A stretch of DNA of 64,000 nucleotides, from the NCBI RefSeq assembly GCF_000143535.2, contig NC_037324.1, positions 620,001-684,000 on the forward strand, written 5' to 3'. Every line of letters starts with the position of its first letter. The first letter of the stretch is position 1. Below the pieces are notes generated by a model. It saw only the letters and a program-made list of their open reading frames with translations, was not told the DNA's origin and searched no databases. Positions 60,052-63,828 of this stretch are shown here, one piece after another. Made by a program: the position numbers and the translations under genes. Origin of the DNA: Botrytis cinerea B05.10 (taxonomy: Eukaryota > Ascomycota > Leotiomycetes > Helotiales > Sclerotiniaceae).

Positions 60052-61154
60052 TCATGGAATTGCTGGTAAAATAACTTCTCCCTCTTTTGGCTGCACATCC
60101 AACTGGCCGTCTTCACGCCATGGTGCTTGATGTTTCTCTGCAAATTGCCTTATATCATCAAAATTCTTGCATTTGTGATCACGGTTGAAGTCCGGATATA
60201 AGTGAACACGATCTCCAGACTTTGCCCACAAAAAGGGATGTGCTCCTGTATCGGCTGAACACATTAGGCTTTGGCGGACGGTGTCTAGACAGTGGTCTAT
60301 TATGGTTGTCAGCAATTGTTTCCACCGACTAGTGCTAATGTACATACTTATATGTGCCTTCAAGATATACTCTTCATTCTTGAATGGCCCTTCTCCGAGA
60401 TTGTGGTAGTACTCAGAGTTGTAATAGAGTCCTTGTCGGAGAAGATTCTATGTATCATTAGCCTCCGTTTATGATCTCTCACTTTGCAAGCAAGTGCTAT
60501 CTAGAATTGGAAGTCTTACCAGACAATGCAATTGATGCATTACCTCAACTATAGCAGGATAACCAGGACCTCCATCTTTCTCATCTACTCGGAAATGATC
60601 AAGTGATATTCCTGCTTTGGAAGCATCTTCTGGTGGGATGATTATTGCTTTATCTATTGTTTTGTGTCAGCATCGAAATTTATTTTGCTTGAGATAGAAA
60701 CTGGCAACATACATTTCGTTCCAAGGTTGTGCCATGCTTCATCAACTTCCGGACTCGGTTCTTCTCTGTATATAGTGTTGGTAAACAGCGAACCATTGAA
60801 TCGAACAGTTTCGTATTCAATGTCAATATTATCGAGTATGGGGCCTGTGAGAGTCAGTTCACGTGTTATGCTTTTCAGAAGACAAAGTTTTGGTAACTGA
60901 CTCCAAGTTTGACTTGTATGCTTAGCACACACGTTGTCTAGATTTCTGAGAGGTTGATGTGTGGTGAGATATGTTGCGGTGTTTGTAAGCAGCGTAACGA
61001 CAACCATACATGATATCCAGAAACAAGTCTGCTTTTTTGAGCATTTCGTGATTCTAGGATTATCTAGGGGTGAAATATGAGATTTCTCAGTCCCTGTGTA
61101 TTCGTTTTCCAGATCAGCGAGAAATGGTACACTTGACTCATCTGAATTTCCCAT
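60052..61154 (-). CDS. UstYa-family (DUF3328) membrane oxidase, RiPP maturation
   Basis: Members of this family oxidise and cyclise peptide cores in fungal RiPP pathways (UstYa/UstYb in ustiloxin biosynthesis). Four exons: 60713-61154, 60520-60653, 60348-60447 and 60052-60296; introns 59, 72 and 51 bp; all phases close; 306 residues, usual for the family. One transmembrane helix follows a cytosolic N-terminus (CFWISCMVVVTLLTNTATYL, ~43-62). Both family signatures are present: His-Gln-Leu-His-Cys (~187-191) and His-Ile-Asn-His-Cys (~224-228), the HxxHC pair thought to bind copper. Upstream of them lie EVDEAWHNLG and PPEDASKAGISLDHF, also typical. It is transcribed in the same direction as the repeat precursor 0.8 kb away. 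Confidence 0.92.
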
Positions 61155-61982
61155 GCTTTCTCTTAATTGAACTCAAATATTGAGGCGTGAGTTTGAATGT
61201 AGGTAGTACCGCTTCTCTGTCTTGTTAAACTGGAAATTTTGTTGAAGATTTCGCAAGCAGCCATCTGAAGCACCGAATGCCGAAAGTCCCTCGCCAAACC
61301 CCCACCCCTCGGCCCCCTCAAAGATTCCAAGAAAGATCCGAAGATCACTATCTACCTTCCAGTTCCAGCATTACGAGCCTGCAGTTCGCAATCGGTTTCC
61401 GAACGATCCATCGTAAGCACTTAAATGATCTGATCTTCACGTACTTTCAGAATGCCGCTCGGTCTTGATAAGAACACGAAAGATCGACCTAATCATATTC
61501 TGTATCGATGGGCTCCGAATGAAGAAAGATACGTTGATTTACACGTACAAGCGTTCTGTGGCTTTGGATCGTGCATGCATATTGTGGGTTGAAGGATCGC
61601 CAAGACTGATACCTCCTTCCCCTTTTGGTCAAGACAGAAGCGAGCCCCGCATGACACCTCAACTCGTGGCATTTGCGGATATAATGCGGGTCTAATATTG
61701 ATACTAACGACTCCACGAGTATCTTCAAGGTTTACGATAAGTAACTACATACGAAATACAAGTTCTATATCTCATCATTAAAGATTCTACAGTGTGACAA
61801 ATCATTGGTTTAGTGACAGTGTTACAAGTTAATGTGGCAATAGACAAGTGTGCATGAAGGCTATTCAGTTACATTAAATTCTTCATTTGGACATAATTTC
61901 ATCAAAGACCATCCTCAAAGCCCCGCCTTCCGTGGCAAAAAAAAACACACCCCTGGCTTCTTTCCTCAGAGCAAAGACTTTT
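61155..61982. other. Intergenic region within the peptide cluster
   Basis: Upstream of the UstYa-type gene and downstream of the precursor gene. Short frames only; no extra cluster gene is seen. Confidence 0.5.
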
Positions 61983-62677
61983 CTATTGTACAACATAAAA
62001 AAAGTTGGTCGCTTCTTCTGCTGGCTCAGCATCCCTCTTTTGTACCGCATAGAAAATGTTGGAAGCTTCTTCTGGCACGGCATCCTTCTTCTGGACAGCA
62101 TAGAAATAGTTGGTAGCTTCTTCTGCTGGCTCAGCATCCCGCTTTTGTACCGCATAGAACCAATTTGTTGCTGCTTCTTCTGGCACGGCATCCTTCTTCT
62201 GAACAGCATAAAAGATATTGGAAGCTTCTTCTGGCACGGCATCCTTCTTTTGAACAGCATAGAAAATGTTGGCAGCCTCTTCTGGCTCGGCATCTCGTTT
62301 CTGGACAGCATAAAAGATATTGGAAGCTTCTTCTGGCAAGGCATCCTTCTTCTGGACAGCATAGAAATAGTTGGTAGCTTCTTCTGCTGGCTCGGCATCT
62401 CGTTTCTGGACAGCATAGAAGATATTGGACGCTTCTTCTGGCACAGCATCCTTCTTCTGAACAGCATAGAAGTAGTTGGTAGCCTCTTCAGCTGGCTGAG
62501 CATCCCGCTTTGCCTCTACAGTGTATCCAGCATCGTGTGCCTCTCTTTCTTCTGTCATTGATGTTAGAATGAGTTATTCATCCATAGATTTAAAGTGAGC
62601 TACATACCAACTGGAGTAGGGAGAGCAATTGCTACACCGAGCAAGCTCAAAGCTGTTAATGCATATGTGACCTTCAT
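61983..62677 (-). CDS. Secreted repeat precursor of a dikaritin-like RiPP
   Basis: Two exons: 62608-62677 and 61983-62551, intron 56 bp (GTATGT donor, CTAAC branch, ACAG acceptor), 212 residues. Exon 1 is a signal peptide (hydrophobic core YALTALSLLGVAIA, cleavage near Ala18). Exon 2 holds a short leader, then ten tandem units of 17-18 residues. Each unit is KR or KK, an acidic spacer (DA-x-P-[A]EEA), then a core N-x-F-Y-A-V-Q. The variable core residue in order is Y, I, Y, I, I, I, W, Y, I, F; the last core has V for A and is followed directly by the stop. Basic pairs fit Kex2-type cleavage. The invariant Tyr fits UstYa-dependent side-chain cyclisation. Family placement is by architecture and neighbours; the product is unknown. 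Confidence 0.88.
61986..62510 (-). repeat. Ten tandem 51/54-bp repeats encoding RiPP cores
   Basis: In-frame units of 17-18 codons with strong nucleotide identity. The pair KK-unit plus KR-unit forms a higher-order repeat of about 105 bp in parts of the array. Confidence 0.92.
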
Positions 62678-63213
62678 GATGACGGTGGGTTATGGAGTTG
62701 TTTGAGTGAAAGACGAAGTGGGAGTGGTGTTTATAGAAGGCCTGAGTTCCTATATTCCAGGAGCAATTGGAAACTATATATAACATGATCTTGACCACAA
62801 TATTACCTAAGGATATCTGGAGTACTTTTGACCTCCTTCCTAATCCGTTGAAGTGGGATATCTTCAAGGGTGCGGTTGCAGGTGCATATTCGAAGGATTC
62901 GCTTCCCAGATATAGTTTATCAACTTAACGCTTCTGCAGCATGCATGGGAAAGGTTTCTGCACAAATAATTATCAGCGACTATATCCCCACGAACTCCCC
63001 AATGAAATTTGAGAGTCTGACACTGGCTGCATTATTTTGATATTTTTGTTGGTCATTGCTATCTTTGCCTAGTAATTGACGTCAGGCTACCAAGACCATC
63101 TCGGAACAGTCGGTTTGATCGCATTCTGCTGTTCACACAACTTTGTCTCATCAATTTTTCCTGCCCCAAACACCTCTAACAAAATACATCCTGCGAAGGA
63201 GCAAACAACTACT
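62678..63213. promoter_or_regulatory. Divergent promoter of the precursor and second UstYa-like gene
   Basis: 536 bp between the precursor start (minus) and the HxxHC protein start (plus), suggesting joint regulation. A TATAAAC at 62729-62735 on the minus strand lies 52 bp from the precursor ATG, and a TATATATAA stretch is at 62775-62783. No regulator site is recognised. Confidence 0.5.
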
Positions 63214-63828
63214 ATGGACTCTAAACGTGTGCGATATGATCAGCTCCCACTTGAAGAAAATTCCAGTCCGCCGGAGACAAGAAAGACCACCTCAATTACG
63301 AGAAGACTCATTCAAGGTTTTCTGTGTGTAGCTGTCCTAGCATCAATCATCATTGGTAGCATCTGGGCATGGTCTCACAAACACCCCAATCTACCTCAAT
63401 ACATCGACTGCGGCTCCTCGACCGAAGAAGCTATCTCCAAAAACTGTGTTATGGAACCCATGATATACGGTTGGATACCACGTGAATGTTACTTCGCCGA
63501 TCTCAGTGCACAGTATTCCCCATTCGAAGACAGAGAGTGGTACACAGACGACACCTATACAGTGCGAATACCCCCCGCAGACTTATGGGCGGGAAAGAAC
63601 AAACACGCTTTTACGCACATGTATCACTCGACGCATTGTTTTTTCCTCTGGAGGAAATTGGCATTGGGGATTGCGAGGAGAGCGGATTATTTGGATGACA
63701 AAAGTTTGGATTTGGAGCATTCGGATCACTGTTCCGAGGTTTTGGATCACTATGGAGGGGAAACGAGTAATTCGACGAATGATGTTTATTTGGGATTTCA
63801 TAGGTGTGAGAGGTTGGCTTGGGTGTAG
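63214..63828 (+). CDS. Divergent UstYa-like membrane protein with two HxxHC motifs
   Basis: 204 residues, single exon, start at 63214 (ACT ATG G context); an upstream in-frame start at 63076 would bury the membrane anchor and is rejected. One transmembrane helix at ~32-50 (GFLCVAVLASIIIGSIWAW) follows a basic cytosolic tail. The ectodomain begins with CGSSTEEAISKNC and continues MIYGWIPRECYFADL, a Cys-rich block not found in classic UstYa. Two HxxHC motifs follow: His-Ser-Thr-His-Cys (138-142) and His-Ser-Asp-His-Cys (169-173). Same topology and motif pair as the UstYa gene at 60.1 kb but otherwise different, so it may do a different oxidation. It shares a promoter region with the precursor. 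Family assignment rests on motifs and context. Confidence 0.8.
   Translation: MDSKRVRYDQLPLEENSSPPETRKTTSITRRLIQGFLCVAVLASIIIGSIWAWSHKHPNLPQYIDCGSSTEEAISKNCVMEPMIYGWIPRECYFADLSAQYSPFEDREWYTDDTYTVRIPPADLWAGKNKHAFTHMYHSTHCFFLWRKLALGIARRADYLDDKSLDLEHSDHCSEVLDHYGGETSNSTNDVYLGFHRCERLAWV

What the first reader, a model, noticed from the sequence alone, without database searches (positions are those of the whole stretch)
60052..63828. Candidate undescribed dikaritin-like RiPP cluster
A signal-peptide precursor with ten KR/KK-bounded core repeats sits between two genes for membrane proteins with paired HxxHC motifs. Known fungal clusters (ustiloxin, phomopsin, asperipin-2a, epichloecyclin) share this layout: repeat precursor, Kex2-like processing, UstYa oxidase. 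The core N-x-F-Y-A-V-Q is not one I know. Its conserved Phe-Tyr suggests a Tyr-linked macrocycle. Only three genes are visible; methyltransferase, tyrosinase or transporter genes could lie past the right edge.
Basis: partly seen in the sequence, partly recalled or inferred. Interest (0 to 1): 0.92.

Follow-up and report, generated by a model that had tools for sequence, protein, structure and literature searches.

The report
Botrytis repeat-peptide RiPP gene cluster
The grey-mould fungus carries a compact three-gene set, with relatives of each gene in close kin, that looks built to cut a repeated secreted protein into ten short tyrosine-containing peptides and cross-link them into ring-shaped natural products; it is one of several such sets in its genome.

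Summary
In Botrytis cinerea (C15:680,052-683,828) a 212-aa signal-peptide precursor with ten Kex2-bounded units lies between a UstYa gene (PF11807, E=7.9e-65) and a gene for a divergent double-HxxHC membrane protein. It meets the working definition of a dikaritin-type RiPP locus. Precursor and divergent protein carry consecutive locus tags in Botryotinia calthae; relatives of each gene occur in Botrytis/Botryotinia and Sclerotinia, though no other single species was shown with all three. All 27 of 27 units from four species contain [N/K]xxYxV; 5 of 7 Sclerotinia cores read YAVG or YVVG, one Ile-to-Val step from ustiloxin's YAIG/YVIG, so I predict a Tyr-Val ring rather than one defined by Phe-Tyr. 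No tyrosinase lies nearby; the scanned right-flank ORFs gave no methyltransferase and reach ORC5 within 7 kb. The divergent protein belongs to a family largely missed by PF11807 that sits beside repeat precursors at 4 of 6 examined loci, once without PF11807. Surveys already show such loci are common (1758 of 7878 repeat precursors), so this is a new member of a known kind. Product and expression are not shown.

The parts
60052..61154 (-). UstYa-family gene (PF11807), 287 aa; exons 61154-60902, 60844-60713, 60653-60520, 60447-60348, 60296-60052; HxxHC at residues 168 and 205
   Evidence: splice sites chosen by hand and agreeing with relatives P0017-P0019
61983..62677 (-). Repeat precursor gene (KEP), 212 aa; exons 62677-62608 and 62551-61983; signal-like N-terminus
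   Evidence: homologues P0001-P0003
61986..62510 (-). Array of ten units, each [KR/KK]-DA-x-P-...-N-x-F-Y-(A/V)-V-Q
   Evidence: shuffle control
62678..63213 (.). Shared divergent upstream region (536 bp) between the precursor gene and the second HxxHC gene; presumed promoters
   Evidence: gene positions; regulation not tested
63214..63828 (+). Divergent double-HxxHC membrane protein gene, 204 aa, single exon; no PF11807 match
63625..63639 (+). First HxxHC motif (HSTHC, residues 138-142) of the second protein
63718..63732 (+). Second HxxHC motif (HSDHC, residues 169-173) of the second protein

Best explanation
A compact dikaritin-type RiPP locus. The precursor enters the secretory pathway; Kex2 cuts at KR/KK to release ten units of 15-16 residues; a Ste13-like dipeptidyl peptidase could trim the DA-xP that opens every unit; the membrane-anchored UstYa protein and its divergent HxxHC partner oxidatively join the Tyr side chain to a neighbouring residue, most likely the Val two positions on (Y-[A/V]-V), as ustiloxin and phomopsin join Tyr to Ile in Y-x-I. 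The modified peptides are then secreted. Shown: gene structures, units, motifs, relatives. Inferred: processing order, trimming, the Tyr-Val bond (about 50%), the share of each oxidase, secretion.
For: Ten Kex2-bounded units behind a signal-like N-terminus. PF11807 match E=7.9e-65 with two HxxHC motifs in the neighbour. Second neighbour with two HxxHC motifs whose family relates to UstYa by profile (score 41.2 against at most 23.3 in 40 column shuffles) and by the same strand-helix-helix-strand-strand order around the motifs in two AlphaFold2 models. All 27 of 27 units hold [N/K]xxYxV. Ustiloxin/phomopsin cores YVIG, YAIG, YVIP are joined Tyr to Ile (PMC7329392 passage).
Against: No metabolite, transcript or mutant data. 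No tyrosinase within 700 kb on the contig, although ustiloxin and phomopsin need one; no methyltransferase or peptidase among the flank ORFs scanned. No other species was shown to hold all three genes; precursor homologues number only three, and in Hyaloscypha the oxidase relatives found list different contigs with no precursor found. The profile relation of the second protein rests mainly on the motif residues: with them masked the wider alignment falls to 20.4, inside the shuffle range.
Confidence: 0.85

Rival explanations
1. The precursor yields linear secreted peptides (signal- or effector-like KEP), and the neighbouring HxxHC proteins act on something else.
For: Most KEPs (6120 of 7878) have no DUF3328 neighbour and are thought to act as linear peptides (PMC7329392 passages); no product of this locus is known.
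Against: Two different double-HxxHC genes flank the precursor, one sharing its upstream region; consecutive tags of precursor and second oxidase in B. calthae; Tyr in every unit, as in 65.6% of repeats with DUF3328 neighbours against 38.2% without.
Confidence: 0.1
2. The repeat protein is a structural cell-wall or surface protein.
For: It is secreted-looking and repetitive.
Against: No cysteine, no hydrophobic C-terminal tail (it ends FFYVVQ), a dibasic site before every unit and oxidase neighbours.
Confidence: 0.03

Closest known systems
Ustiloxin and phomopsin loci (dikaritins)
   Same: Signal peptide, Kex2-separated repeats, Tyr core of the form Y-[A/V]-x-x, more than one double-HxxHC protein
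   Different: Third core residue Val instead of Ile; no tyrosinase nearby and no methyltransferase among scanned ORFs; second HxxHC protein outside PF11807; three visible genes instead of 15 (ustiloxin)
Asperipin-2a locus
   Same: Small set (four genes suffice, PMC10512285 passage); absence of a tyrosinase there is recalled
   Different: One DUF3328 protein in asperipin-2a, two HxxHC proteins here; a different core (its sequence is recalled only)
KEP types with DUF3328 neighbours in Umemura 2020 (PMC7329392), for example type G-5/P-1
   Same: Types listed for Botryotinia, Botrytis and Sclerotinia, with Tyr and DUF3328 neighbours
   Different: The supplementary list could not be opened, so whether this precursor is an entry, and of which type, is unknown
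Putative RiPP cluster of Sclerotinia sclerotiorum chromosome 3 (PMC6941272)
   Same: Same fungal family, DUF3328 genes, induced during infection
   Different: Found through DUF3328 pairs with tyrosinase/peptidase neighbours; closest homologue in Talaromyces; the passages I saw show no precursor. Whether it is the same locus as precursor P0003 was not tested

Membership tests
Dikaritin RiPP locus | Precursor with N-terminal ER signal peptide | tested here: met
   Hydrophobic N-terminus by hydropathy; no dedicated signal-peptide predictor available
Dikaritin RiPP locus | Repeated core units separated by Kex2 sites | tested here: met
   10 units, KR or KK before each; 0 of 20 shuffles
Dikaritin RiPP locus | Neighbouring UstYa/DUF3328 protein with two HxxHC motifs (class-defining enzyme according to PMC12048977) | tested here: met
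   PF11807 E=7.9e-65, HxxHC at 168 and 205
Dikaritin RiPP locus | Tyr in the core (usual, not universal) | tested here: met
   27 of 27 units in four species contain [N/K]xxYxV; the last S. sclerotiorum unit fits only through a second motif
Dikaritin RiPP locus | Tyrosinase, methyltransferase, transporter or peptidase genes in the cluster (the five-gene definition of Ding et al.; later found dispensable, both according to PMC12048977) | tested here: not met
   Nearest tyrosinase match on the contig at 1,390 kb; none of these domains in the 7 right-flank ORFs (except a TPT transporter 15 kb away) and 10 left-flank/window ORFs scanned; not every ORF was scanned
Dikaritin RiPP locus | Cross-linked peptide product | not testable with these tools
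   Needs mass spectrometry
UstYa family (PF11807), for the second HxxHC protein | Match to the Pfam model | tested here: not met
   0 families at E up to 0.1; 4 of 18 family members match, best E 0.0011
UstYa family (PF11807), for the second HxxHC protein | Membrane anchor and paired HxxHC on successive helices | tested here: met
   spacing 30-31 residues instead of 37
UstYa family (PF11807), for the second HxxHC protein | Profile-level homology | tested here: inconclusive
   Score 41.2 (A1) and 30.8 (A3) against at most 23.3 and 21.7 in 40 column shuffles each; 25.7 and 20.4 when the motif H and C are masked

The most novel reading that the evidence does not exclude
The divergent HxxHC family is a second branch of RiPP oxidases, largely outside PF11807, that can serve repeat precursors on its own (the C1 locus: three such genes, a Tyr-free repeat precursor, no PF11807 match within 8 kb), and at the C15 locus it works with a classical UstYa protein to make a ustiloxin-like Tyr-Val macrocycle in grey mould and Sclerotinia.
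Probability: 0.35. Interest if true: 0.7.

Novelty: new member of a known kind. Interest (0 to 1): 0.52.

Why it matters
PMC10512285 (2022, passage) counts only five reported dikaritins, and PMC12048977 (2025, passage) names Sordariomycetes, Eurotiomycetes and Dothideomycetes as their sources. A compact Leotiomycete locus with a clear core gives exact peptide masses to look for in a well-studied fungus whose listed secondary metabolism (44 key enzyme genes, PMC9920419 passages) names no RiPP. If the second HxxHC family is confirmed, genome mining by PF11807 alone misses part of the fungal RiPP oxidases.

Tried and rejected
Tailoring genes past the right edge: of the ORFs listed for L004 and L005 (25 and 19 of at least 90 aa, many in overlapping frames) I scanned 7 with Pfam: an APH-type phosphotransferase, a Fungal_trans_2 transcription factor, AAA_16 plus ORC5 (two ORFs), a TPT transporter, and two small ORFs without a match, one of which I read as a secreted cupredoxin-like protein. 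None is a known dikaritin tailoring enzyme. NCBIfam gave only sub-cut-off matches for the precursor and none for the oxidases. Pfam matches to the precursor: DUF3903 and PKC_C2 exceed their whole-protein cut-offs, but no single stretch passes, so I dismiss them as repeat artefacts. PDB sequence searches found nothing for either oxidase; Foldseek on the second-oxidase model found nothing below E 1.8. A search for core letters gave six papers, unrelated by title (listing only).

Expression lead, not used as evidence: PMC7214349 Table 2 lists BCIN_15g01960, 'secreted', 211-fold up on tomato at 24 h, under the name 'RNA methyltransferase, TrmH family, group 3'. Interpolating gene numbers between Xyn11B (15g01600) and GAPDH (15g02120) puts 15g01960 near C15:684.5 kb, at this cluster (my arithmetic; it assumes that C15 is chromosome 15 and that the GH11 and GAPDH matches are those genes). 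Counting ORFs could not settle whether it is the precursor, an oxidase or a neighbour.

The count of second-family loci (7) rests on a one-sequence search at E up to 10; the C2:1,694 kb match has E 0.10, though its ORF shows both HxxHC motifs and the CG...GC region (by eye).
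Full report
What is there. The window is C15:620,001-684,000 of a 42.63-Mb, 18-contig genome. A public Botrytis cinerea protein (H4I96_09497, P0008) equals the second oxidase except for a middle stretch read in another frame, so I take the organism as Botrytis cinerea; that size and contig number fit strain B05.10 is recalled. Three genes fill 60052-63828. On the minus strand lie a five-exon UstYa-family gene (61154-60052, 287 aa) and a two-exon precursor gene (62677-61983, 212 aa); divergently, on the plus strand, a single-exon gene for a 204-aa membrane protein (63214-63828). 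The five introns are 51-72 nt, GT...AG. Splice sites are my choice from the sequence.

The precursor. After a hydrophobic signal-like stretch and a short spacer come ten units, five opened by KR and five by KK, then DA-x-P (10 of 10), an acidic linker and N-x-F-Y-(A/V)-V-Q; the last core ends at the stop codon. None of 20 dinucleotide shuffles of the window gave an array of three or more similar dibasic-bounded units. Codons of the fixed residues differ between units (Val GTT/GTC/GTA, Gln CAG/CAA, Ala GCT/GCG), which fits selection on the peptide rather than fresh copying (not tested statistically). Homologues were found in Botryotinia calthae (5 units), B. convoluta (5) and Sclerotinia sclerotiorum (7, in a gene model with an extra N-terminal stretch that I take as a wrong start). 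All 27 of 27 units contain [N/K]xxYxV; the last S. sclerotiorum unit is degenerate and fits only through a second motif. Over those 27: Asn 26, Phe 22, Ala after Tyr 21 and Val there 4, final Gln 20 and Gly 7. So Tyr and Val are the fixed pair and Phe is not.

The oxidases. The minus-strand protein is a clear UstYa family member (PF11807, E=7.9e-65, scanned with one mistyped residue), with relatives in B. fragariae (93%), Sclerotinia nivalis (83%) and S. borealis (78%), and 40 homologues at E up to 1e-20. The plus-strand protein has two HxxHC motifs and a hydrophobic anchor but no Pfam match at E 0.1. Its 13 homologues (one being the misread B. cinerea model) run from B. calthae (98%), B. fragariae (89%) and S. 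trifoliorum (76%) to Hyaloscypha variabilis (45%). Of an 18-member alignment of this family 4 members match PF11807, best E 0.0011. Profile comparison with 28 UstYa proteins aligns the paired HxxHC region: score 41.2 against at most 23.3 in 40 column shuffles and 13.0 reversed; for the wider alignment A3 30.8 against at most 21.7 and 15.6. With the motif H and C masked the scores fall to 25.7 and 20.4, the latter inside the shuffle range, so the relation rests mainly on the motif region. Motif spacing is 30-31 residues in 16 of 18 second-family members (the other two show one motif) and 37 in 25 of 28 UstYa proteins. AlphaFold2 models of moderate confidence (pLDDT 75.6 for the second protein, 77.0 for the B. 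fragariae UstYa orthologue) show the same local order: N-terminal helix, strand, helix with HxxHC, helix with HxxHC, two strands. I read it as a remote branch of the UstYa superfamily. Whether it corresponds to UstYb of the ustiloxin cluster was not tested.

Conservation of the set. In B. calthae precursor and second oxidase carry consecutive tags (BOTCAL_0411g00050 and g00060) and list the same 33,996-base contig. No other single species was shown with all three genes. In Hyaloscypha the homologues found list different contigs and no precursor was found. The database is clustered at 90%, so members hidden in clusters were not seen, and only 8000 precursor candidates were scored.

Surroundings. 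To the right come an APH-type phosphotransferase, a small secreted-looking ORF, a Fungal_trans_2 transcription factor and ORC5 (about C15:690.4-691.8 kb), and further on a TPT transporter, ATP synthase beta and others. To the left are a DUF6640 protein and, among the ORFs scanned, no dikaritin enzyme domain (not every ORF was scanned). The nearest tyrosinase match on the contig is at 1,390 kb, next to other UstYa matches. The visible cluster is thus three genes, perhaps with the transcription factor.

The wider genome. PF11807 gives 47 matches in 26 loci and the second family 12 matches in 7 loci. Of the 7, 4 lie within 8 kb of a PF11807 locus, against about 1% expected each (binomial P 4.8e-7); leaving out this window, 3 of 6 (2.5e-5); leaving out also the weak C2 match (E 0.10), 2 of 5 (0.0012). 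I examined 22 of 26 PF11807 loci and 6 of 7 second-family loci by ORF and repeat scans of stretches of 10 kb or less. Repeat precursors lie at 4 of the 6 second-family loci (this window, L018, L019, L027; not L028, L032), and dibasic repeats at 4 of the 18 other PF11807 loci (L007 strong; L009, L013, L016 weaker, signal peptides not checked). At the C1 locus (L027) second-family genes (three matches) and a Zn2Cys6 transcription factor sit with a spliced 129-aa precursor whose three units lack Tyr, with no PF11807 match within 8 kb. That is the most novel hint here: the second family may be a RiPP oxidase in its own right.

Mechanism. Kex2 release and oxidation by HxxHC proteins follow dikaritin biology (PMC7329392, PMC10512285, PMC12048977; passages); trimming of DA-xP by a Ste13-like peptidase is my inference from the known preference of such enzymes for X-Ala and X-Pro (recalled). 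Ustiloxins A and B are YVIG and YAIG and phomopsin YVIP, all cyclised between Tyr and Ile. Of the 7 Sclerotinia units 3 read YAVG and 2 YVVG; of the 10 B. cinerea units 9 read YAVQ and 1 YVVQ. Val offers the same kind of branched beta-carbon as Ile, so a Tyr-Val link is my first guess, made without the tyrosinase that ustiloxin and phomopsin need. This is inference.

Known or new. Umemura's survey (PMC7329392; passages and part 1 of section 6) found DUF3328 neighbours for 1758 of 7878 repeat precursors, and several types include Botrytis and Sclerotinia; its supplementary list could not be opened, so this precursor may be an entry. A 2023 review of B. cinerea secondary metabolism (PMC9920419, passages) and the 2011 genome paper (PMC3158057, passages) have no occurrence of RiPP, DUF3328 or Kex2. 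The S. sclerotiorum study (PMC6941272, passages) proposed one RiPP cluster on chromosome 3. My ten paper searches listed no paper that by title or passages seen describes this locus; most listed papers were not opened. I therefore call it a new member of a known kind, with an unusual second oxidase.

Noticed in passing
L027:8801-8195 (-), with second-family ORFs at L027:1966-2739 (-) and 6519-7280 (+) (C1:1,181-1,191 kb): A spliced 129-aa repeat precursor with three Tyr-free units (GAFEE(Q/S)KTIVIVRVKG core) beside second-family HxxHC genes and a Zn2Cys6 transcription factor, with no PF11807 match within 8 kb.
   Followed up: partly
L019:2678-1347 (-) (C3:651-653 kb): Repeat precursor (AEAAPWYKESAAADDAGLA units) with introns inside repeats; its last exon appears to run on into about 150 residues holding HQSHC and HVIHC, as if precursor and UstYa-like domain were one gene. 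No Pfam match.
   Followed up: partly
L018:164-811 (-) (C2:2,656 kb): Signal-peptide precursor with at least nine copies of QTTEFGPYPEDDYNT-KR near PF11807 matches and a second-family HxxHC ORF (L018:5230-5994).
   Followed up: partly
L007:8050-8918 (+) (C7:406 kb): Repeat precursor with many (EA/EP)ELSYVNS-KR units near the strongest single-frame PF11807 match of the genome.
   Followed up: no
L028 (C5:746-756 kb): Four second-family HxxHC ORFs clustered with an MFS transporter and no repeat precursor detected.
   Followed up: partly
window 63214-63828: The public B. cinerea model H4I96_09497 (P0008) reads the middle of this gene in another frame and so loses both HxxHC motifs, hiding the oxidase from annotation-based mining.
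   Followed up: yes
C15 near 684 kb (gene number BCIN_15g01960): A 'secreted' gene reported 211-fold up on tomato at 24 h (PMC7214349 Table 2) interpolates to this cluster; identity not settled.
   Followed up: partly
L030:2895-6365 (-): A 576-aa ORF with a KIN17-type zinc finger lies between two coding pieces of an ATP synthase beta gene on the same strand.
   Followed up: no
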